A stretch of DNA of 24,628 bases from Nitrospinota bacterium. GTDB taxonomy: Bacteria > Nitrospinota > Nitrospinia > JACRGO01. Where the stretch lies: the NCBI GenBank assembly GCA_016212295.1, contig JACRGO010000152.1, forward strand, positions 1-24,628. The letters run 5' to 3'. The notes below the pieces were generated by a model. That model saw only the letters and a program-made list of their open reading frames with translations, made no database searches and was not told where the DNA came from. The position numbers were made by a program, and so were the translations under genes. Within the stretch, counting starts at the first letter, position 1; the number at the start of each line of letters is the position of its first letter. Shown one piece after another: positions 1,053-24,588 of the stretch.

Positions 1053-2273
1053 TCACGGCTGCTTGTCAAAAAAATTTTCCAAAACATTTTTCAAAACCCA
1101 TCCATATTCCTCCACTATTGCCTCCACTACCCCCCTTCGCGAAAAATTTTCTGGCAATACTCCGTAAGTATAAGTCTCAATTTCCAGATGGGGCGCGGCC
1201 CCGGCCGCTAAAAGCGCCGCGAATTCCGGCGTGAGCAGGGACGAAGTGGATTCCAGCCCCTCGTGCTCCACGAAAAAAAGGGGCACATGGAAATGGACGC
1301 GCCACTCGTCCTCCTCGCACCCGGCGGAAGCCTCTTTTGCCAACGCATCAGGCAGGTCTGGCCAGGAATCAATCCTCCCCCCTGCCCTCTTCACCTTCAC
1401 CTGGTGCAGATAAACCGGATCGCAAAATTTCCTCAGCTTTTCCAACGCCTGGCCGGTTGGCTTCAACCGCAGTCCGGCGCTAAGCTGGACCTTTGGAACT
1501 GAAATACAGTGGTCCAGTAACCGCTTGAGGCCCCGGCTCAAATCCTCGAATTGAACGGCCTGGTGCGCTGTGTCGAAACAAATCCCCAAATGGCGGTTGA
1601 TGATGTTCAGCGCCCCGGAGGACCCAAGGCCGTACCGTTTTTTCAAATACCTTTTGCCATCTGTCCTCAGTGGTCCCTCGAAAAAACTCACCGCCTCCTC
1701 AGTGGTCTCAAGAAGGCAATCCGGCTCAGGTTCAAGTCCAATGCAAATCAGTCTCCCGGATTGTTCATGGATCTCCGCCAGCCGGAACGCCGCGTCCGAA
1801 AGCCTTTCCGCCATCAGCGAAACATCTCCCTCCCGCCTTATCCACTTTTTATAGGAACATGGAACGGAGCTGATGCTGCCCGGCATGGATTCAGGGAGTA
1901 TTTTTGAAAGTATATCAGCGAGGAGCATGGTGTATTCAAGCCGCTCAGAGGTCCGCCAGTCAGGTTGGTACACCCTCTCCTTTACCGGACCGCCGTGAAA
2001 CCGGCCGTATGGAAAACCGTTTACGGTAAAGACGTATAGATTTTGGGCTGAAAGAAATTCCTGGAATTGCTCCAGTGCAACAGGGTCCTTCAATGTTTGG
2101 GCGGCCCGGTAACTCAGGCGCAGCCCAAGGCCAAAGGGGCCTTTCCCGCCAATCAAGTCCCTTATGGCCAAGGTTTTTTCCTTGATGGCGGAGAAATTCT
2201 CCTCCCATGATTCTCCTGGGTGTACGTTAAGGCAGTAGGTCAGGTGCAGTTGCGGGCCCGTTTTGATTTTCAT
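1053..2273 (-). CDS. eboE: EboE-type metabolite traffic protein (TIM barrel)
   Basis: 406 aa from the ATG at 2273. Family signatures: LTYCLNVHPGESW (11-23), FGLGLRLS (47-54), YVFTVNGFPYGRFH (80-93), VYQPDW (101-106), GSISSVPCSYKKW (132-144). Probable metal-site residues of a xylose-isomerase-like barrel are E181 (LEPEPD), D234 and H237 (CFDTAH), H327/H329 (VHFHVP) and E366 (ETYTYG). Known: EboE belongs to ebo clusters (EboA-F) linked to metabolite trafficking or export, for example of scytonemin precursor; its chemistry is unsettled. Seen: the gene starts 4 bases after the upstream stop, suggesting translational coupling. No EboA/B/C/D/F partner is visible, so this is an orphan. An in-frame TTG at 2300 is less likely. 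The terminator at 878-925 closes the unit. Confidence 0.8.
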   Translation of the reverse strand: MKIKTGPQLHLTYCLNVHPGESWEENFSAIKEKTLAIRDLIGGKGPFGLGLRLSYRAAQTLKDPVALEQFQEFLSAQNLYVFTVNGFPYGRFHGGPVKERVYQPDWRTSERLEYTMLLADILSKILPESMPGSISSVPCSYKKWIRREGDVSLMAERLSDAAFRLAEIHEQSGRLICIGLEPEPDCLLETTEEAVSFFEGPLRTDGKRYLKKRYGLGSSGALNIINRHLGICFDTAHQAVQFEDLSRGLKRLLDHCISVPKVQLSAGLRLKPTGQALEKLRKFCDPVYLHQVKVKRAGGRIDSWPDLPDALAKEASAGCEEDEWRVHFHVPLFFVEHEGLESTSSLLTPEFAALLAAGAAPHLEIETYTYGVLPENFSRRGVVEAIVEEYGWVLKNVLENFFDKQP

Positions 2274-2277
2274 GGTT

Positions 2278-2820
2278 TCATGCAAGCTCCAATGCCTCAA
2301 CCAGCAAGGACAGTTCCGTTAAATTTTTGGGAGAATCGTTATAGAGGATTTTTTTCTTTCCCTTTCCCCAAGGGAGTTCCCTGGTCTTTGAGACGCCCAG
2401 TTTTTTGTAGGTTTTCAGGTCGTTCAAACCCTCCTCCGTGTACACAAGCCACCTGGTCTTGAGGCCCCCTTTTTTAATAAAGGATTTAAAAAGTCTGGCG
2501 GCTTCGGCAACGTTCCAGATGGCGTGGCCCTGGTTTTTTTCCTGATCGCATGGCGCCAGTATCCTTGGTCCATAGCGGGTCTTATTTTCCAGAAACGCGG
2601 CCCAATTGATCCCGATGACAAGGCGGCCCATTACTTTTTCCTCCTGGGAGAGGGCCTGAATTTCCAGCTTGTATATCCACATGTTTTGGATAACACCGGT
2701 GTTCAGCGCCTTTGTTATTGGCTCCTTGGGCGCGATCTTCTCGAAGATATGCTTGATTTGCAGCGCAATCACCATCCGCCGGTTGATCTGCTTGCCTGGA
2801 ATGGATTTAAAGAAGGACAT
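2278..2820 (-). CDS. Conserved hypothetical protein, 180 aa
   Basis: Start ATG at 2820 was chosen because AGGA lies 6 bases upstream; the frame continues further upstream only through repeat DNA (VFFSS, AAAKPRY). The product (MSFFKSIPGKQINRRM...) is soluble, basic and mixed alpha/beta. It begins with an amphipathic helix region (residues 8-40), then predicted strands (MWIYKLEIQAL, GRLVIGINWAAF), a helix (WNVAEAARLFKSFIKKGG) and a Lys-rich C-terminus. No signal peptide or membrane segment. I do not recognise the family. The strand pairing and lone-domain size faintly recall bacterial HORMA-type proteins, but no CD-NTase or TRIP13-like neighbour is present, so no function is assigned. It is immediately upstream of the eboE-type gene (4-base gap) and probably co-transcribed with it. 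Confidence 0.6.
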   Translation of the reverse strand: MSFFKSIPGKQINRRMVIALQIKHIFEKIAPKEPITKALNTGVIQNMWIYKLEIQALSQEEKVMGRLVIGINWAAFLENKTRYGPRILAPCDQEKNQGHAIWNVAEAARLFKSFIKKGGLKTRWLVYTEEGLNDLKTYKKLGVSKTRELPWGKGKKKILYNDSPKNLTELSLLVEALELA

Positions 2821-3070: not shown

Positions 3071-4648
3071 TCAGCATTCCTTAACTATTTCTGCCATGCG
3101 CATGGGATCGAACAGGAAAAACGGATACTCCCTGAACCGGAGAGCCTTTTCCTCTTCCTCCCTGACGCGAAGAGCGGCCAATTCCTGTTCCGTCTCCAGG
3201 CGCGCTGGTTCCAGAAAGGAGTAGAGGGTTTCATTTATTTCATGTATTCGCCGGAAGAACTCCTTCCCTCTGCTTTCCACTGAAGAGTCTCCAAGCAGGG
3301 AATTTTTAACGCGCAGGATATCCATGAACTCCCTTCGTTTTGATTCATCAGGAATGGCGTCCAGGAATTTTTCCGGCTTGAACTTCATCTCCCGCAGCCG
3401 GATTTGTAATCTCTCATCTTCACCATCAGGGAGGCCCGATATTCCTAGTTCCGGGTAAAGGGTCAAAGAGGCCGCAAGGTAATGGGGCGGGGTGACTTTA
3501 AAATATTCCCTCATTATGAAATCCGATGTCTCGTCGTATTTTCCACCTCCTATCCCGTGCAGGAAAAGATCGCAAAAGAAGAGGCGGAAGAAGAGGGTAA
3601 GGGCCAATGCCTTGGGCCGTATGCGGACGGACGCCTGGATAAGCCTTTCAACGGCCTCGCCCGTGGCGGACCGGCCCACTTCCCAAATTCCGTTTCCTTC
3701 GAACTCCAGGGAAAATTTCCCGGTCGCGGAATCCGCTTTAGCGGTGGATGCGGAGAGCACGCTATGTCTGGCCCCCTTTTCATCTATCCACCAAAAGGGG
3801 AGTTCACAAAGTCCTTCGCCTGTCCGCAGGTCCGGAAATGGATTCGCCTTGTACCTGAGCTTGTGCCGTTTCCGGTAATCCTCCAGCGCGGAGTTGTATG
3901 CTGAGGCAAAACGTTTGGCGTCGGCTGCGATCATCATGAAGAAGCGGAGAAAGGACCGGGTCCCGCAAGCATGGGACAAGGGCAGGGAGAGATAGCCAAG
4001 CTTTGCCGGTTCCTCGAATCCGCGCCGCAATCGTGCAAGGAAGCCGGAGAGTCCACGGTCCTTCTCAATAATTCCAGACCCGATCCGCGCCAATGTCTCC
4101 ATCCTTTCCAGAATTTTTTTATCTGGAAGGGACGCCAGATGTCCCCTGGCCCTGGCCGTGAAGTCTTCCCATTCCCCGGCGGACGGGACGCTGAGCGACT
4201 CCAGCGCGTGTTCACCGGTCCAGGTCCCCAAAGGCTCCCGCGCGATCCTCAAGTTGTCAACTCTCGTTGGCAGTGGTACAGCCATTGGACCGGCCATATT
4301 GCTGTCCACCTCCAGGTTCACTGCCAGGGCGTTGGATTCAAGCGCCAGCCGGTCCAGGAGAAAATACTTTATCCAGACTCCGGGATGGTTAAGGAGAGGT
4401 TGGTGGCCGGAGAGAATTATCCGCTGGACATTTATGGACTCCTGCCTCTCGCCGCTGACGCCGCACCCAAGGCGGACCAGTTCCTCCCTGCAATGCGCGC
4501 GGAAGGAATTTCCGTCCATGTTCCCCAGGGAAAGGGAGGAGAGGTCCAGGCGGGAGCGATTCTCCTCTATCCTGTCCCCTGCCTCGGAAATGGGGAAGCT
4601 GCTAAAAAATTCGCCGTTTTTTTCCGGCACTGTCCAGTGTTTGGTCAT
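3071..4648 (-). CDS. BshC-like conserved protein, 525 aa
   Basis: Start ATG at 4648 (MTKHWTVPEKN); upstream codons lie in the repeat hairpin and no clear ribosome site is seen. Diagnostic stretches: LSGHQPLLNHPGVWIKYFLL, followed by AVNLEVDSN; mid-protein LFFRLFFCDLFLHGIGGGKY with TSDFIMREYFKVTPPHYLA; C-terminal Glu/Arg-rich helical segment ending REYPFFLFDP. The GHQP-x-L-x-HPG-x-W motif resembles the G(H/Q)QPGLFTGP segment of BshC, the cysteine-adding enzyme of bacillithiol synthesis, and I recall similar uncharacterised proteins in planctomycetes. BshA and BshB are not present here, so bacillithiol synthesis is not claimed. Soluble, no signal peptide. It heads a same-strand group with the 180-aa protein and EboE; the 250-bp gap holding a repeat makes co-transcription uncertain. 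Confidence 0.65.
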   Translation of the reverse strand: MTKHWTVPEKNGEFFSSFPISEAGDRIEENRSRLDLSSLSLGNMDGNSFRAHCREELVRLGCGVSGERQESINVQRIILSGHQPLLNHPGVWIKYFLLDRLALESNALAVNLEVDSNMAGPMAVPLPTRVDNLRIAREPLGTWTGEHALESLSVPSAGEWEDFTARARGHLASLPDKKILERMETLARIGSGIIEKDRGLSGFLARLRRGFEEPAKLGYLSLPLSHACGTRSFLRFFMMIAADAKRFASAYNSALEDYRKRHKLRYKANPFPDLRTGEGLCELPFWWIDEKGARHSVLSASTAKADSATGKFSLEFEGNGIWEVGRSATGEAVERLIQASVRIRPKALALTLFFRLFFCDLFLHGIGGGKYDETSDFIMREYFKVTPPHYLAASLTLYPELGISGLPDGEDERLQIRLREMKFKPEKFLDAIPDESKRREFMDILRVKNSLLGDSSVESRGKEFFRRIHEINETLYSFLEPARLETEQELAALRVREEEEKALRFREYPFFLFDPMRMAEIVKEC

Positions 4649-4658
4649 TGATTGCCCG

Positions 4659-4840
4659 TATCGCGGCATGGCCGCAACCAAAAGGAAAACAAAATCCCAA
4701 ATGACAAATAGCAAATTACAAATAAACTACAAATTACAATTACCGAATGCCCAAAACAATTCCTTTTCCTTGTTTGTTCTTTGTAATTTTGGTTATTGAG
4801 ATTTATTTGTTATTTGGCAATTGTAATTTGGATTTTCATA
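4659..4840 (+). repeat. Composite dispersed repeat, copy 2
   Basis: GC hairpin (TATCGCGGC-atg-GCCGCAACC) at 4659-4679, then the AT-rich palindrome with CAAATTACAATTACCGAATG and TTGGTTATTGAGATTTATTT. It lies directly upstream of the start of the BshC-like gene, whose 5' leader must cross it. Confidence 0.85.
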
Positions 4841-4930
4841 AAAACTTTAGTAACTAACTATTCAGTGTGTTTTTATTTTTGTTCTCCTTAAAACTGAATT
4901 TTTATAGTTAAAGGGAGCCTGCGGTCTTTT

Positions 4931-5033
4931 TACATCCCCCTGGCCCCCTTTTCCAAGGGGGAATCAGGCGATGTCCGGGCGATGGATGGCACAACCCATT
5001 CCCCCTTAACAAAGGGGGATTAAGGGGGATGTA
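4931..5033. mobile_element. MITE-like element with C-rich/G-rich inverted ends, copy 1
   Basis: The element begins TACATCCCCCTGGCCCCCTT and ends AAGGGGGATTAAGGGGGATGTA, about 34-bp imperfect inverted ends around a ~35-bp core, 103 bp in all, with no coding capacity. A second copy is at 23166-23265 with a different core. The rest of the gene-free stretch 4841-4930 and 5034-5124 shows nothing recognisable beyond AT-rich sequence. Confidence 0.75.
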
Positions 5034-5124
5034 AAGATGCATTTAACGGCGACTATCGGGGTTATATAATATTTCGCTGAATAGTTACAAACTTTGTTAA
5101 AAAGTTGCAATCACAAATCTAAAA

Positions 5125-6477
5125 TCACTCCCCTCCATGCCTGATCTTTTCCCAATACTCCTTAAAGGAAAAGCGTGGGTCCTTGGACCTCGTGTGGCAC
5201 CTCCGGCAGGTTTCCTCGTTCGCCTTGCCGTATGGCTTTGACGAGTCGGCAGTGTGTTCCTTTCCTGGACCGTGGCAGGACTCGCATTGCACATTGCCAA
5301 GCTCCGGCGTGACTTCCCTCTCAACGTATCCGCCGGACCCATAACCAGTCACATGACACCCGACGCATTCTGGATCGAAGGACCCGCCCTCGGATTCCAA
5401 GGTTTCCAGGGCGCGCGCGTGGCGGGTCAGCCTCCAGCCGCTTACTATCTTTTCATGGCAGGGCATGCATGACTCAGCCGAGACGTAAGGCGAGGTCTCT
5501 CTGGCCTTTTTTCCCTTTTCCGATTTTTCCATGAACAATTTTTTTGCCGACTCCTTATATTCCGCGTAAAGAGGCTCCATATCCGGGTCATCGTTAATGG
5601 AAGCGTCCAACGTTATCCAACGGTGGCGAAGGGCCGGGGCCTCGCCTTGTGACACGGTGATTTCCCCAATCCTCCTTCCCCGGTTGTCGGCGAAAAAAAT
5701 CCCCCTCTCTTCCCGCTGGACGGGTTCCTTGGGCGTTTCGTTCTCCGGGTCATCAGTATGGCCTGCAACAATAATTTTTATCGCCGGAAATTCCGATAAA
5801 ATTTCATTGGCCTGTGTGTCAGAGCCGTGGAACAGGAGCGCTGGAATATCAACCCTGTTCTCCCGCAAGAGAGAAGCAAGCCGTTCCTTTAGAAATTTCC
5901 CGGGCGGCTCAATGGAAATTCCAGCGTGCGAGGCGTTGGGGAAAAGGGCAGGGTCGATCAGTCCAATGATCCCAACGCGAATGCCGGTGGAAAGCTCCTT
6001 CACAATTATATCCAGAAACGAAGCACCGGGATATTTAAGGTTGGAGGCGAGCCAGCCGCCGAAGCCCTGCGCGGCAAAGAAGGACGGACCGTACGCAAAA
6101 TCCTTTTCTCCTGCTAGCGCCGCGTTGTATTTCATGACAGGCAAGGCCCTGGCGATGAAGTCCGCTTTCAGGCGGCCCTGGGCGCTTGACCCTTTCAAGC
6201 TGTCTCCCGCGTCCAGCACGAGGACGTTTTTTTCTTTTTCCCTCACTGATTTAATTGCCGCGGCGCGCCTTGGCAATCCGCCGAAATCCGCTTCCTTCGA
6301 GCAGCCGCAGGGCTTGATCTCCTCCAGCGTGTTTCCGGTGTAGAGTATGGTGAAGGAAGGCGGTTTGGCTTCTTCGGTCCCCTGCGCCCAGAGCGCGGTA
6401 TAGGGCAGGAAGGACGCGGAGAGAGGGAAAATGGCCAGGGACAAGAATTTTAAAAATTTGCGCCTACAATTTTTCAT
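5125..6477 (-). CDS. UshA-like phosphoesterase / tetraheme cytochrome c fusion
   Basis: 450 aa. Signal peptide 1-32 (hydrophobic 11-30, A-x-A-like end). Residues 42-290 follow the UshA/5'-nucleotidase metallophosphoesterase layout: FTILYTGNT, VLVLDAGDSLKG (85-96), LAGEKDFAYG (121-130), LLFHGSD (214-220), IVAGHTDD (236-243). The usual DxH ligand pair at the first motif is absent and the GNHE-type motif reads GEKD, so ordinary hydrolase activity is doubtful. A CGC pair (57-59) sits at the first motif; I recall UshA-like (seleno)protein families with Cys or Sec there. Residues 330-450 are cytochrome c554-like with four CxxCH sites at 337, 371, 398 and 424. Inferred: periplasmic redox protein. 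The gene overlaps the upstream glycosyltransferase gene by 14 bp, indicating translational coupling. Confidence 0.85.
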   Translation of the reverse strand: MKNCRRKFLKFLSLAIFPLSASFLPYTALWAQGTEEAKPPSFTILYTGNTLEEIKPCGCSKEADFGGLPRRAAAIKSVREKEKNVLVLDAGDSLKGSSAQGRLKADFIARALPVMKYNAALAGEKDFAYGPSFFAAQGFGGWLASNLKYPGASFLDIIVKELSTGIRVGIIGLIDPALFPNASHAGISIEPPGKFLKERLASLLRENRVDIPALLFHGSDTQANEILSEFPAIKIIVAGHTDDPENETPKEPVQREERGIFFADNRGRRIGEITVSQGEAPALRHRWITLDASINDDPDMEPLYAEYKESAKKLFMEKSEKGKKARETSPYVSAESCMPCHEKIVSGWRLTRHARALETLESEGGSFDPECVGCHVTGYGSGGYVEREVTPELGNVQCESCHGPGKEHTADSSKPYGKANEETCRRCHTRSKDPRFSFKEYWEKIRHGGE

Positions 6478-7867
6478 TTTCCCAACGGGTATACAGGCCG
6501 TCCAGGACCAATCCGCAGCTATAAACGGCGAAGGGTATCAGGGCCAGCATGGAGCGGTGGATGGTCATCTCATTCTGGAGAAACAGGAAATTATGGGTCA
6601 GTATGTATGGAAGAAGGGAGGCCGCGCAAGCGGCGCCCAGGAATATGAAATTATAACGCAATGGCGGCTCTTTTAAAATTTTCCAGCCCGCTATAATAGT
6701 GAGAAGCAGTCCCAGCCAGAACAGGTCATACTCCCCTTCAAAAAAAAGTTTTTGATACAAATGGTAAAACGCCTCTGGATGGAACTCAAGCGCCGTGCCT
6801 TTGTCACTCTGGTCAAAGGCCAGGCCGAACTTCCATTTAATGGCGATCCACACGGCGTCTACCGCTAACGCCGCTGCCATGTATAGCGCCACCTTTTTGA
6901 AATTTTCCATGATTTTTTCCTTCCGCGAAACCAGGAACAAAAAAAGCGTGAGGAGAATGGACGGAGTGTATAGGACCAACCCCTCGTTTTTCGTCAGGTT
7001 GGCGACCCCAAGCAGGCAGGCGGAGGCGATGAAGTGCGGCCCTTTTCCAGAGTCGAACCACTTGCAAAGATAAATAGCTGACGAGGTGAGGAAGAACGAG
7101 ATTGTGAGGTCCGCGTAATTGCTCGCGGAATGGACCAGAAAGAATGGGACCGAGGCGAGGAGGTAAACAGCAAGGAAGGGGACGAACCTTGAGCGGACGC
7201 CTTTTAAATGGACATAGACCGTGGCCAGGAGCAGGAAGCCGTAAAGTGAGGAGAGGAGTTTAGCCGCTGGCTCGCTCCAGCGCCCAATGGCCGTCATCAC
7301 GTACGCCTTGAGGAGTTGGATGTAGAGCGGATAATGCTTCTTGTGCGACCCGCCCAGAAAGGATTCGCTTTCAGGGTCCATGCTGAGCTTTCCCTCGTAA
7401 AATATGATCTTGGCCCTCAGGTTCCAATGCGTGAAGGCATCGTCGAAGCAGGTGGGCATGTAGAGGACGTGGGACGCCACGAAGACCAGTTTGAAAGCCA
7501 TGATGGAAAGGAAAACGCCTGTCAATATCTTCTGGGCCAAGGTCAATGGGACTTTATTTTCCCCGCCTTCTGAATTACTGGAAGCCTCTCCTCGAAAAAA
7601 AACAGGACGGCCTTGGGAAAAAAGGCACAGGCAGCCCAGTATAAAGGCGATAAGGTATGGGACAAAATGGCCCTTGGAGTAGGAAAGACCGGCGATTCCC
7701 AGGCATAACATATAGACTGTGAGGGTCCCAGTGCCCAAGGCGAAGGAGAGAAGGAATTTCTCACCATAGGAAAACACCCGCTCTTTTTTTTCAATGAAGG
7801 CCACTATGACATAGCCGGAGAAGAGGGGGAGAGAGAGCCCGGTGAAAAAGAGAAGGAGGGTTTTCAT
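6464..7867 (-). CDS. GT-C family glycosyltransferase (ArnT/PMT-like membrane protein)
   Basis: 467 aa with about ten or more hydrophobic segments (5-25, 38-60, 68-86, 112-134, and others through 450). A large first extracytoplasmic loop carries the acidic motif CFDDAFTHWN (140-149; D142, D143), typical of GT-C enzymes using lipid-linked sugar donors. HYPLYIQLLKAYVM (178-191) and NYADLT further on are consistent with the family. Known: GT-C enzymes move a sugar from polyprenyl phosphate to lipid A, protein or glycan at the periplasmic side; the substrate here cannot be told. CAGGA just upstream of the ATG is a plausible ribosome site. The 3' end overlaps the start of the phosphoesterase-cytochrome gene by 14 bp, so the two are probably one operon. 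Confidence 0.8.
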   Translation of the reverse strand: MKTLLLFFTGLSLPLFSGYVIVAFIEKKERVFSYGEKFLLSFALGTGTLTVYMLCLGIAGLSYSKGHFVPYLIAFILGCLCLFSQGRPVFFRGEASSNSEGGENKVPLTLAQKILTGVFLSIMAFKLVFVASHVLYMPTCFDDAFTHWNLRAKIIFYEGKLSMDPESESFLGGSHKKHYPLYIQLLKAYVMTAIGRWSEPAAKLLSSLYGFLLLATVYVHLKGVRSRFVPFLAVYLLASVPFFLVHSASNYADLTISFFLTSSAIYLCKWFDSGKGPHFIASACLLGVANLTKNEGLVLYTPSILLTLFLFLVSRKEKIMENFKKVALYMAAALAVDAVWIAIKWKFGLAFDQSDKGTALEFHPEAFYHLYQKLFFEGEYDLFWLGLLLTIIAGWKILKEPPLRYNFIFLGAACAASLLPYILTHNFLFLQNEMTIHRSMLALIPFAVYSCGLVLDGLYTRWENEKL

Positions 7868-15107: not shown

Positions 15108-18100
15108 ATGCCCAAAAAGCCCGCGAAAGCAAGAACTAATAAAACTAATAGAACTAATAGGACCAATATGACCGATAGGTCTGATCTGACCGATCAGCCC
15201 GATAAAACCACCCCAACCAATAAAACCACCCCAACCAATAAAACCAACAGAACCAATGGAACCAACAAACCCACCCCCTTCCCCATTGTCGGCATCGGCG
15301 CCTCAACCGGCGGGCTGGAGGCCCTGGAGGTCTTCGTTTCCAATATGCCCTCCGGCCAGAACATGGCCTTTGTAATCATCCAGCACCTGAGCCCCAGCCA
15401 TAAAAGCATCATGGCTTCCCTGCTGGATAAACACACGAAAATGGCGGTGCTGGAGATCAAGGACGGCATGAGGGTCCAGCCCGGCTCCCTCTATCTCAAC
15501 CCGCCTAACAAAAACGTGGCCCTCATCAACGGCAGGCTGCATCTGTCCCCGCCACATGAAATACATGGAGTGAAACTGCCAATCGACTACTTCTTCCGCT
15601 CCCTGGCCGAGGACCAGGGGGAAAAGGCGATATGCGTGGTCCTCTCCGGCACCGGCACTGACGGCACCTTGGGACTGAAGGCGGTAAAGGGCGCCGGTGG
15701 AATGACAATGGCCCAGGAGGAAGCCCAGGCCAAGTATCCGGGAATGCCGAGGAGCGCCATTGACACCGGCATGGTGGACTTCGTCCTGCCCGTGCAAAAG
15801 ATGCCTGAGGAGTTGATGAAATACGCCCGGCACCCGTATATAAGGGGACCGCTCAAGGAAGAGGAGTCCGCTGAACACCCCTTTTCCATGTTCGTGGACA
15901 AAATATTTCTCCAGATCCGGTCACAGGCCGGACACGATTTTTCCCACTACAAGCGAAGCACCATCCACCGCCGCATCCAACGGCGCATGGCCGTGCATCA
16001 AATCGACAAGATCGCGGATTATGTGCGTTTTCTTCACCGGACCCACGGCGAGGCGAACATCCTCTTCAAGGACCTCCTTATCGGGGTGACCAATTTCTTC
16101 CGCGACCCGGACGCATTCATGTCCCTTAAGGAAAAGGTCCTCCCAAGTCTCCTGGAAAACAAGACCCGCGACACTCCCTTGCGCGTATGGGTCGCGGGAT
16201 GCGCCACCGGCGAGGAAGCCTACTCCATGGCCATCCTCATACTGGAGACCATGGAGGAGATGAAGAAGCATGTGGAGTTCCAAATCTTCGCCACGGACCT
16301 GGACCACGAGGCCCTTGACCACGCCCGTCTGGCCGCTTACCCGGACAGCATAGCGGCGGACGTCAGCCCCCAGCGTCTCGAACGTTTCTTCGTGAAGGAG
16401 GACAATACCTACAGGATCAAGAAAAAGATACGGGAGATGGTGATCTTCGCGGACCAGAACCTGATCAAGGACCCGCCCTTTTCCAGGCTGGACCTTGTCT
16501 GCTGCCGGAACCTCCTCATCTACATGGACTCCTACCTTCAGAAAAAAATCCTCCCCCTCTTCCATTACACGCTGGTCCCCGGCGGCGCCATGTTCCTTGG
16601 CTCTTCCGAGACCATAGGGGATTTCATCGACCTCTTCCAGCCTCTGGATATCAAATGGAAGATATTCCGGCGCAAGGAGGCGTTCCTGGAGAGGGCCGCG
16701 GATTACCGCGGCGTCCCTTTCTTCAAGGTCCTCCAGCCCCTGGAAAAAGGCGGAAAGGACAAGAGGCCCGGCAAAATAGAAGCCCGGCATCTTGTTGAAA
16801 AGGTCATTCTGGACAACTACGCCCCTCCGTGCGTCCTCATCAATGAAAGATACGAAATTCTTTATTTTATCGGCCGCACGGACCGCTATCTCGCGCCTCC
16901 TGCCGGGGAGCCTACTTTCAATATCCTTAATATGGCAAGGGAGGGGCTCAGGTACAAACTGAACACCGCCCTGCATAAGGTGCTCAACCAGAAAAAGGCG
17001 GTGGTGGAGGAGGGAGTGCGCGTGAAGCAAAACGGGGACTTCCGCACAGTGAACCTGGTGGTGAGGCCGTTCGTGGAGCCGGACTTCCCCCAAAACCTTA
17101 TCATGGTCCTCTTTGACGACAAAACCCCTTCCTTTCCTTCCGCCGGAAAAAAGATAAAATCCTCCGCCGGCAAGGAGTCGGATCCCCGCATCGCCGCCCT
17201 GGAACAGGAACTCTATTCCACCAAGGAATATCTCCAGACCACCATTGAGGAGTTGGAGACCTCCAACGAGGAATTAAAATCAACAAACGAGGAGTTGCAG
17301 TCCGTGAACGAGGAACTGCAAAGCACGAACGAGGAACTGGAGACCTCCAAGGAGGAACTGCAATCCACCAACGAGGAACTGGTCACTGTGAACGCTGAAC
17401 TGCAGAAGAAGGTTGATGAACTCTCCCAGGCCAATAACGACATGAGCAATCTCCTGGCCAGCACCGATATAGGGACCATCTTCCTGGACGACAGCCTGAG
17501 GATCAAGCGCTTCACCCCGGCCATGACCAGGATATTCAACCTTATTCCGTCGGACATCGGCCGTCCCATCAGCCACATCACGTCCAACATAGACAATGAC
17601 AGGCTCCAGAGGGACGCCAGGGAGGTCCTCAGGACCCTGGTCTGGAAGGAACAGGATATTAACGCCGGGGAAGGAAAATGGTATGCCATGCGCATCATGC
17701 CGTACCGCACAACTGAAAACGTCATAGACGGACTGGTCATTACCTTCGTGGACGCCACCAATATCAAGCAGGCCGAGGGGTCGTTAAAGGAAAGCGTGGA
17801 GCAGTACCGCGCCCTTGCGGAGAACAGCCGGGACTATATTCTGCGGTTTGGCCGGGATTGCCGTCCTGTTTACGCCAATGCAGCGGCGTTGAGCATTTCA
17901 GGCACGGTGGCGGGACAATTAACCGGGAAGACGCGCCAGGAGTTAGGCTTCCCGGAAGACCTTTGCGCCCTGTGGGAAAAGGCAATATGCAAGGTCTTCA
18001 AAACCGGCAAGCCGCAAATGGAAATTTTTGAGTGGGAAAGCGCCGGGGGCAGAAAGACCCTTGACTGGAGGTTCATGCCGGAATTTTCCCCGGACGGCGC

Positions 18101-18161
18101 GGTGGCAACTGTCCTTTGCGTGGCGAGGGACGTCGCGGGATTGGAGAAGAAAAGGGGTTGA
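15108..18161 (+). CDS. CheB-CheR hybrid methylesterase/methyltransferase with PAS domains
   Basis: 1017 aa with AGGAGG five bases before the ATG. Order: Thr/Asn-rich low-complexity leader (about 10-55); CheB methylesterase 58-240 with catalytic S66 (GIGASTGG), H93 (QHLSPSH) and D185 (GTGTDG); CheR helical domain from 262; CheR methyltransferase with GVTNFFRDP (326-334), SAM loop AGCATGEEA (363-371) and FATDLDHEAL (394-403). A long coiled coil (about 700-780) of ELxSTNEELQS heptads follows, then two PAS domains (about 785-895 and 900-1012). No receiver or kinase domain is present. Known: such hybrids regulate chemoreceptor methylation or signal with stand-alone kinases. No other che gene is nearby, so the partner chemoreceptor array is not in the window. 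Confidence 0.95.
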   Translation: MPKKPAKARTNKTNRTNRTNMTDRSDLTDQPDKTTPTNKTTPTNKTNRTNGTNKPTPFPIVGIGASTGGLEALEVFVSNMPSGQNMAFVIIQHLSPSHKSIMASLLDKHTKMAVLEIKDGMRVQPGSLYLNPPNKNVALINGRLHLSPPHEIHGVKLPIDYFFRSLAEDQGEKAICVVLSGTGTDGTLGLKAVKGAGGMTMAQEEAQAKYPGMPRSAIDTGMVDFVLPVQKMPEELMKYARHPYIRGPLKEEESAEHPFSMFVDKIFLQIRSQAGHDFSHYKRSTIHRRIQRRMAVHQIDKIADYVRFLHRTHGEANILFKDLLIGVTNFFRDPDAFMSLKEKVLPSLLENKTRDTPLRVWVAGCATGEEAYSMAILILETMEEMKKHVEFQIFATDLDHEALDHARLAAYPDSIAADVSPQRLERFFVKEDNTYRIKKKIREMVIFADQNLIKDPPFSRLDLVCCRNLLIYMDSYLQKKILPLFHYTLVPGGAMFLGSSETIGDFIDLFQPLDIKWKIFRRKEAFLERAADYRGVPFFKVLQPLEKGGKDKRPGKIEARHLVEKVILDNYAPPCVLINERYEILYFIGRTDRYLAPPAGEPTFNILNMAREGLRYKLNTALHKVLNQKKAVVEEGVRVKQNGDFRTVNLVVRPFVEPDFPQNLIMVLFDDKTPSFPSAGKKIKSSAGKESDPRIAALEQELYSTKEYLQTTIEELETSNEELKSTNEELQSVNEELQSTNEELETSKEELQSTNEELVTVNAELQKKVDELSQANNDMSNLLASTDIGTIFLDDSLRIKRFTPAMTRIFNLIPSDIGRPISHITSNIDNDRLQRDAREVLRTLVWKEQDINAGEGKWYAMRIMPYRTTENVIDGLVITFVDATNIKQAEGSLKESVEQYRALAENSRDYILRFGRDCRPVYANAAALSISGTVAGQLTGKTRQELGFPEDLCALWEKAICKVFKTGKPQMEIFEWESAGGRKTLDWRFMPEFSPDGAVATVLCVARDVAGLEKKRG

Positions 18162-23165: not shown

Positions 23166-23265
23166 TACATCCCCCTTAATCCCCCTTGACAAGGGGGAAT
23201 TAAACCAGATCCCATTTTAGGTGTTTCCGTATTCCCCCTTACCAAAGGGGGACCAAGGGGGATGT
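23166..23265. mobile_element. MITE-like element with C-rich/G-rich inverted ends, copy 2
   Basis: The element opens TACATCCCCCTTAATCCCCC and closes AAAGGGGGACCAAGGGGGAT plus GT, 100 bp, with arms of about 30 bp and no ORF. Same family as 4931-5033. The remaining intergenic sequence up to the next gene shows nothing definite. Confidence 0.75.
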
Positions 23266-24057: not shown

Positions 24058-24588
24058 ATGAGCTTTAAAATGCGGTCTGTTTTTTTCAGTTTCCTTTTCC
24101 TTGCGGTTTCGGCCTTCCTTTTCTCACTTGGGGAAATGAACGCCTGGGCCAAGGACAACGACGCTGTCAAGAAATGCGGCGGGTGCCACAAGCAGTACCT
24201 GGAGGATTGGGCCCCAACCAAGCACGGAAAGATTTTCACCAATAGCCCGCAAAACGCGCTTCAGGCAAGGGCCTGCGAGGCATGCCACGGGGACGGGGCG
24301 GACCATATAGCCGACGCGAAAAAGGCCGCTGATGAGGCCGGCGGCAAGGTGGACCTTGGCCTGATCCGGAGCCTTACAAAAAAATCAAAACTCTCGGCCA
24401 AGGAAAAAGACGACGTTTGCCTCCAGTGCCACAGGAAGGAAGCCAGGAATTTTCTCTGGATGGGAAGCAAGCATGAAGCCTCAGGCCTCACGGTAAATTT
24501 GTTCTACCATATCTCACACGCCATTAAGGGTGCAGGAGTTTTTTGTCATGCGCAGGTAATCGAAGACCAACCTGGCGCTACGGTGTAG
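24058..24588 (+). CDS. DmsE/MtrA-like multiheme cytochrome c, truncated
   Basis: 176-codon frame, strong GGGGAGG ribosome site. Signal peptide 1-31 (SFLFLAVSAFLF ... NAWA). Three CxxCH heme sites: CGGCH (40), CEACH (73) and CLQCH (121), with LEDWAPTKHGKIF and WMGSKHEASGLT in the pattern of DmsE/MtrA-type decaheme cytochromes. Known: those proteins are about 300 aa or more, with up to ten hemes, and carry electrons across the periplasm or outer membrane. After GLT (residue 145) the expected next CxxCH is replaced by VNLFYHISHAIKGAG and the frame stops at 24588 without further hemes. The break is at about 24493. The gene is thus probably an interrupted pseudogene; residues 146-176 are not cytochrome. 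Confidence 0.8.
   Translation: MSFKMRSVFFSFLFLAVSAFLFSLGEMNAWAKDNDAVKKCGGCHKQYLEDWAPTKHGKIFTNSPQNALQARACEACHGDGADHIADAKKAADEAGGKVDLGLIRSLTKKSKLSAKEKDDVCLQCHRKEARNFLWMGSKHEASGLTVNLFYHISHAIKGAGVFCHAQVIEDQPGATV

What the first reader, a model, noticed from the sequence alone, without database searches (positions are those of the whole stretch)
5125..6477. Phosphoesterase-cytochrome fusion with degenerate metal site and CGC motif
The 5'-nucleotidase-like half lacks the DxH pair and has GEKD in place of GNHE, while a CGC pair sits exactly at the first metal motif. It is fused to a c554-like tetraheme domain. This suggests the phosphatase fold has been turned into a redox or metal(loid)-handling module feeding electrons to or from hemes.
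Basis: partly seen in the sequence, partly recalled or inferred. Interest (0 to 1): 0.6.

Follow-up and report, generated by a model that had tools for sequence, protein, structure and literature searches.

The report
Cysteine-type UshA-like heme selenoprotein relative
The gene encodes the cysteine version of an already catalogued but functionally unknown bacterial selenoprotein family, a disabled phosphatase fold joined to a four-heme cytochrome, and in almost all of its phylum (though not next to this copy) it sits beside the disulfide-bond enzyme DsbA while the usual DsbA-recharging enzymes are missing, which suggests it may do that recharging job.

Summary
ORF 5125-6477(-) belongs to the UshA-like (seleno)protein family NF041198 ("PCGU"; 267 bits, cut-off 275). 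In relatives a UGA codon falls on residue 59, so C57-G-C59 is the Cys form of C-G-Sec. Fusion to a c554-like tetraheme domain is usual in the family. C57 and C59 are invariant in all 81 members aligned. The DxH pair is lost, but "degenerate metal site" is only half right: D89, E124, H217 and H240 (metal site 2, Asn to acid) are filled in all 53 Nitrospinota members. The CGC lies 8-10 residues after DxH, in the following loop.

New here: the host is a Nitrospinota bacterium with SelB and tRNA-Sec. In 51 of 51 assessable Nitrospinota loci outside the window's genus, the next gene is a DsbA-like protein. No Nitrospinota genome carrying the UshA-like gene has detectable DsbB or VKOR (0 of 48). I propose a thiol-to-heme electron-transfer protein, in Nitrospinota probably oxidising DsbA. 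That partner is inferred. Against it: the window's genus has unlinked the two genes, and carriers elsewhere show neither the neighbour nor a lack of DsbB/VKOR.

The parts
5125..6477 (-). UshA-like (seleno)protein family member, Cys form, 450 aa
   Evidence: NF041198, 267.3 bits, cut-off 275
6385..6477 (-). N-terminal signal sequence (residues 1-31), RRKFLK motif then hydrophobic stretch ending ALWA; export and Tat-like character inferred from sequence only
   Evidence: sequence
5578..6366 (-). 5'-nucleotidase/UshA-like phosphoesterase domain (about residues 38-300)
6325..6333 (-). degenerate DxH motif (N49-T50-L51), metal site 1 lost
6301..6309 (-). C57-G58-C59; C59 aligns with UGA/selenocysteine of relatives
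6211..6213 (-). D89, bridging metal Asp retained
6100..6111 (-). G123-E124-K125-D126 in place of GNHE; acid at the Asn ligand position
5827..5829 (-). H217, metal site 2 His retained
5758..5760 (-). H240, metal site 2 His (GH motif) retained
5128..5490 (-). c554-like tetraheme domain (residues about 330-450)
5455..5469 (-). heme site 1 CMPCH (337-341)
5353..5367 (-). heme site 2 CVGCH (371-375)
5272..5286 (-). heme site 3 CESCH (398-402)
5194..5208 (-). heme site 4 CRRCH (424-428)
6464..7867 (-). upstream PMT_2-like membrane protein whose 3' end overlaps the start of the finding's gene by 14 bp; context only
3071..4714 (-). downstream 547-aa protein, no family hit, also downstream in the same-genus relative L040; context only

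Best explanation
It is the Cys form of the UshA-like PCGU (seleno)protein family: an exported 5'-nucleotidase-fold domain that has lost metal site 1 and hence the usual two-metal phosphatase chemistry, and that carries an invariant CxC (CxU in relatives) redox pair in the loop next to the old active site, fused to a c554-type tetraheme domain. Proposed mechanism: a substrate dithiol or disulfide exchanges with C57/C59, and the resulting two electrons are passed one at a time through the four hemes to or from the respiratory chain; a single metal in the surviving site 2 (D89, E124, H217, H240) may tune or activate the thiolate. In Nitrospinota the most likely partner is the DsbA encoded next door in most members, with the protein acting as a soluble or lipid-anchored analogue of DsbB that sends electrons to hemes instead of quinone. 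Shown: family, Cys/Sec position, ligand status, fusion, DsbA adjacency and co-occurrence, lack of DsbB/VKOR hits. Inferred: redox activity of the CGC, electron flow to the hemes, direction, metal binding, DsbA as partner. My estimates: family membership in the broad sense 0.95; not an ordinary two-metal nucleotidase 0.9; CGC-to-heme redox 0.7; DsbA as partner in Nitrospinota 0.4.
For: Family: NF041198 at 267 bits over both domains; curated motif CxU (PMC13188914; PMC2398784). UGA aligned exactly at residue 59 in 13 distant members. C57, C59, G66, G67 and G91 are the only invariant columns in 53 diverse members, while DxH is lost and site-2 ligands vary outside Nitrospinota. Four CXXCH plus H353, H408 and H447 invariant in 53 Nitrospinota members. 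DsbA-like protein (PF01323; CGHC) directly downstream, same strand, 13-222 bp, in 51 of 51 assessable Nitrospinota loci outside the window genus plus L162. DsbA and UshA-like genes agree in presence or absence in 58 of 60 class genomes. DsbB and VKOR found in 0 of the 48 UshA-like carriers; the only genomes with VKOR/DsbB (G004, G009) lack both DsbA and UshA-like. All but one DsbA-positive genome has a single such homologue. SoxB, the same fold, is solved in a disulfide-linked complex with a thiol carrier protein (4uwq, Z 27.5).
Against: In the window's own genus the DsbA gene is elsewhere (G000:C119, CSHC, beside an ABC-transporter ATPase and metF; G001:C457). None of the non-Nitrospinota loci searched holds a DsbA homologue near it. 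Among 231 non-Nitrospinota genomes, DsbB/VKOR is no rarer with the family (9/45) than without (53/186; Fisher p 0.35). The joint absences fall mainly in two families (f4, f6), so they are about two independent events. Several genomes lack all of these genes, so absence of a known DsbA oxidase is not diagnostic. No biochemical data; distances between CGC and hemes could not be measured.
Confidence: 0.55

Rival explanations
1. A mononuclear metallohydrolase: site 2 (D89, E124, H217, H240) binds one metal and the protein still hydrolyses a phosphate or thioester-like substrate; CGC is a structural disulfide and the hemes are a separate module.
For: All four site-2 positions are occupied by ligand-capable residues in 53/53 Nitrospinota members. 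C59 aligns with a cysteine of CD73 and snake 5'-nucleotidase in the same loop.
Against: Site-2 ligands are incomplete in 22 of 28 members outside Nitrospinota while both cysteines are kept in all; Sec at position 59 is not expected for a structural disulfide; the His of GNHE is lost.
Confidence: 0.12
2. A SoxB-like sulfur enzyme: the pocket acts on sulfur-loaded thiols or inorganic sulfur species and the hemes accept or donate the electrons (sulfur oxidation or reduction instead of DsbA oxidation).
For: SoxB is among the nearest enzymes by profile (up to 102 bits for relative L115; E 5e-19) and by fold (Z 28).
Against: Best matches by profile and fold are nucleotidases, not SoxB; site-1 ligands lost; the conserved Nitrospinota neighbours are DsbA and an S41 protease.
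Confidence: 0.15
3. One reading: CGC/U binds or reduces a metal or metalloid, with electrons from the hemes.
For: CxC/CxU pairs can bind soft metals (general knowledge); a partial paralogue in the same genus (L164) lies next to a gene that reads like a CsoR-type metal-sensing regulator (by sequence only).
Against: No metal or metalloid resistance gene recognised beside the loci examined; near-universal in complete Nitrospinota genomes, which suits housekeeping better than resistance.
Confidence: 0.08
4. A reductive role: hemes feed electrons to CGC and on to DsbA-like or apocytochrome disulfides, for isomerisation or cytochrome c maturation.
For: Same anatomy run backwards; in the window genome DsbA lies beside an ABC-transporter ATPase gene that could belong to heme export (not confirmed by a family search).
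Against: Nitrospinota DsbA would then lack any known oxidant.
Confidence: 0.1

Closest known systems
UshA-like (seleno)protein NF041198 (UshA_like_PCGU)
   Same: Phosphoesterase-like domain with PCGU/PCGC motif fused to a c554-type tetraheme domain; aligned along both halves
   Different: Window and tested Nitrospinota members score 254-267 bits, just below the curated cut-off 275; Cys not Sec; acid-substituted site 2 uniformly kept; DsbA neighbour in most Nitrospinota
UshA-like (seleno)protein family 2, NF049981
   Same: Related domain with a Cys/Sec motif; weak match (43 bits)
   Different: CxxU motif (PMC13188914), 262-position model without the heme domain, far below cut-off 140
5'-nucleotidases UshA / CD73
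   Same: Fold (Z 29-30), bridging Asp and two site-2 His
   Different: DxH lost, GNHE changed to GEKD, substrate-specificity domain replaced by cytochrome
SoxB thiosulfohydrolase
   Same: Fold (Z 28); SoxB works on a protein-bound thiol adduct (established knowledge)
   Different: SoxB model only 27.5 bits against cut-off 550; no cytochrome in the SoxB model
Cytochrome c554 (Nitrosomonas)
   Same: C-terminal tetraheme domain (E 8e-13)
   Different: Here fused to a phosphoesterase-like domain
DsbB / VKOR (DsbA oxidases)
   Same: Proposed role in Nitrospinota: re-oxidation of DsbA through a Cys pair
   Different: No sequence relation; heme in place of quinone as acceptor; not a four-helix membrane protein

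Membership tests
UshA-like (seleno)protein NF041198 | P-C-G-U/C motif followed by GG-x-x-R | tested here: met
   PCGC at 56-59, UGA of relatives aligns at 59
UshA-like (seleno)protein NF041198 | model match spanning both domains | tested here: met
   E 2.5e-79, model positions 5-266 and 347-519
UshA-like (seleno)protein NF041198 | score above curated cut-off 275 bits | tested here: not met
   267.3 bits; Nitrospinota relatives 254-264; so a close sister branch of the curated equivalog rather than a formal member
UshA-like (seleno)protein NF041198 | selenocysteine at the second motif position | tested here: not met
   TGC codon at 6301-6303 (Cys); the family title '(seleno)protein' admits both forms
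5'-nucleotidase (UshA/CD73) | two-metal ligand set DxH, D, NH, H, GH | tested here: not met
   N49/L51 and GEKD; only D89, H217 and H240 kept
5'-nucleotidase (UshA/CD73) | hydrolysis of nucleotides | not testable with these tools
   needs purified protein
SoxB | TIGR04486 above cut-off 550 | tested here: not met
   27.5 bits
c554-type tetraheme cytochrome domain | four CXXCH and PF13435 match | tested here: met
   4 CXXCH; PF13435 E 4.9e-15 over gathering score
DsbA oxidase (functional analogue of DsbB) | re-oxidises DsbA with transfer to an electron acceptor | not testable with these tools
   only adjacency and co-occurrence tested

The most novel reading that the evidence does not exclude
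In Nitrospinota this family is a previously unrecognised DsbA oxidase: a disulfide-generating system in which DsbA passes electrons through a CGC pair on a repurposed phosphatase fold into c-type hemes, replacing DsbB/VKOR and quinone.
Probability: 0.3. Interest if true: 0.8.

Novelty: new variant of a known kind. Interest (0 to 1): 0.5.

Why it matters
The UshA-like PCGU family is catalogued as a selenoprotein; I found no functional study of it in the papers searched. The DsbA pairing throughout Nitrospinota, together with the missing DsbB/VKOR, gives a concrete, testable partner for it and would name the missing DsbA oxidant of a major group of marine nitrite oxidisers. If right, it is a further kind of electron outlet for disulfide formation, directly into c-type hemes.

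Tried and rejected
Rejected: that the motif or fusion is novel (known family NF041198). Rejected: that residue 57 is the Sec position (it is 59). Rejected as a general rule: that the whole family replaces DsbB/VKOR (no anticorrelation in 231 genomes outside the phylum; no DsbA homologue near the non-Nitrospinota loci). First AlphaFold run with close relatives only left 56-63 and the cytochrome poorly modelled (pLDDT 71); the wider alignment fixed it. Model coordinates are not exported, so heme-to-CGC distances could not be measured. The structure lists were filled by nucleotidase chains, so the cytochrome half was not tested as a fold on its own. Literature searches for Nitrospina with DsbA or UshA/c554, and for DsbA oxidised through cytochromes, returned nothing relevant in titles and abstracts. 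One neighbour search failed for a too-short input and was repeated. The tree needs 6 Sec/Cys switches but deep branches are long and unresolved, so the direction of the change at the base of Nitrospinota is unknown.

Full report
What is there. The ORF at 5125-6477 on the minus strand encodes 450 aa with an N-terminal signal sequence, a 5'-nucleotidase-type domain and a C-terminal domain with four CXXCH motifs. Pfam gives Cytochrome_C554 (E 4.9e-15). NCBIfam gives UshA_like_PCGU, NF041198 (E 2.5e-79, 267.3 bits, cut-off 275), over both halves. The window is one whole contig of a 3.7 Mb Nitrospinota genome; that genome has SelB over the curated cut-off and a tRNA-Sec gene about 0.9 kb away on contig C130.

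The motif. A search of 291 genomes, most of them outside the phylum, found the family in 48 at E 1e-40 or better, many with an in-frame TGA. Extracted and aligned, the TGA lies exactly at the column of C59 in 13 members used for the alignment, always as C-G-U before a GG-x-x-[RK] motif. In 53 diverse members the only fully invariant columns are C57, C59, G66, G67 and G91. The literature lists the family as UshA-like, CxU; the passages read give no function (PMC13188914; PMC2398784; PMC9312934).

The metal site. The profile alignment to CD73 and snake 5'-nucleotidase puts DxH at N49-T50-L51, the bridging Asp at D89, the Asn of GNHE at E124, and the two site-2 His at H217 and H240. That these are the site-1 and site-2 ligands of UshA and CD73 is established knowledge. 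Site 1 is therefore gone. Site 2 is filled by D, E, H, H; in 53 of 53 Nitrospinota members each of these positions holds a residue able to bind metal (D; D/E; H; H or N), but only in 6 of 28 others. One distant member, L114, still has a D-T-H next to CGC. The two cysteines are thus kept where the metal ligands are not, which argues that they are the working part. The CGC is 8 to 10 residues after the Asp position of DxH, in the next loop; its second Cys aligns with a Cys of the vertebrate enzymes in that loop, a possible origin.

Structure. With 53 diverse sequences AlphaFold2 gives pLDDT 91.0 and pTM 0.87. VIA-align finds CD73 at Z 30.1 (rmsd 2.7, 274 aligned), UshA at Z 29.2, SoxB at Z 28.0. 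The cytochrome half is c554-like by sequence: 1bvb, E 8e-13. Besides the four heme-binding His, H353, H408 and H447 are invariant in Nitrospinota. That would leave one heme without a conserved distal His, as I recall for cytochrome c554; this is inference.

Context in the phylum. A named-genome scan gave 53 loci closely related to the window's protein, nearly all labelled Nitrospinota or Nitrospina. In 51 of the 51 outside the window's genus that hold enough downstream DNA, the next gene, same strand, 15 to 222 bp away, encodes a DsbA-like protein, and so does L162 of a further family (13 bp). Its active site is CGHC in the 44 ORFs where it could be read, and it matches PF01323; an S41 protease usually follows (47 loci). 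Across 60 class genomes the two genes are present or absent together in 58 (both in 48; UshA-like never without DsbA). DsbB is found in 1 and VKOR in 2 of the 60, all in genomes lacking the UshA-like gene. All but one DsbA-positive genome shows a single such DsbA. These facts leave the Nitrospinota DsbA without a known oxidant and with a Cys-pair-plus-heme protein encoded beside it.

Limits. The window's own genus is the exception: both genes exist but on different contigs. The joint absences are clustered in two families, so they are few independent events. Outside the phylum neither the DsbA neighbour nor an anticorrelation with DsbB/VKOR (9/45 against 53/186, p 0.35) is seen. The DsbA partnership is therefore proposed for Nitrospinota only. 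The general function of the family, thiol or selenol redox coupled to hemes, rests on the invariant CxC/U, the recurrent Sec and the heme fusion; some members lack the heme domain and must use another partner.

Evolution. In the tree Nitrospinota form one strongly supported all-Cys clade (100/99), with the window and L040 as sisters; Sec and Cys switch 6 times at the least on this tree over 53 rows, 3 being the least forced by well-supported branches. Direction cannot be told.

Verdict. Real, partly misdescribed, and belonging to a catalogued but uncharacterised family just under its cut-off. The added value is the resolved Sec position, the kept second metal site, and the DsbA linkage, which makes a mechanism testable.

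Noticed in passing
window 4929-5035: Between the finding's gene and the next ORF lie nested inverted repeats (TTTACATCCCCCT / AGGGGGATGTAAA, 13 nt perfect; CCCCCTTnnnnAAGGGGG twice). The same palindrome recurs at 23180-23251; 5 matches against 0.28 expected. Possibly a small palindromic mobile repeat.
   Followed up: partly
window 6385-6477: Signal sequence begins MKNCRRKFLKF, resembling a Tat signal (RRxFLK), whereas several relatives have a lipobox-like end; unusual for a c-type cytochrome if truly Tat-exported.
   Followed up: no
window 1053-2300: EboE (NF035939, 417 bits); the adjacent ORF 2278-2928 has no Pfam or NCBIfam hit.
   Followed up: no
window 3071-4714 and L040:4662-6383: 547-aa and 574-aa homologues without any Pfam hit, downstream of the UshA-like gene in both members of the window's genus.
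   Followed up: partly
window 15108-18161: CheB-CheR-coiled coil-PAS fusion of 1017 aa, followed by a PAS histidine kinase and a sigma-54 response regulator.
   Followed up: no
L163:4018-5331: Second UshA-like paralogue in G002 with an ORF upstream that reads like a TlpA-type redoxin (CEPC) instead of DsbA: another thioredoxin-fold neighbour.
   Followed up: partly
L164:4262-5392: Paralogue (31% identical) in the window's genus whose called ORF lacks the CGC region; lies tail to tail with a gene that looks like a CsoR-type regulator.
   Followed up: no
L114: Distant member that keeps D-T-H beside CGC (TNDTHAQIQGCGC), a possible evolutionary intermediate.
   Followed up: no
window 24058-24588: Possible second multiheme cytochrome fragment near the contig end (weak Pfam hits below the gathering scores).
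   Followed up: no
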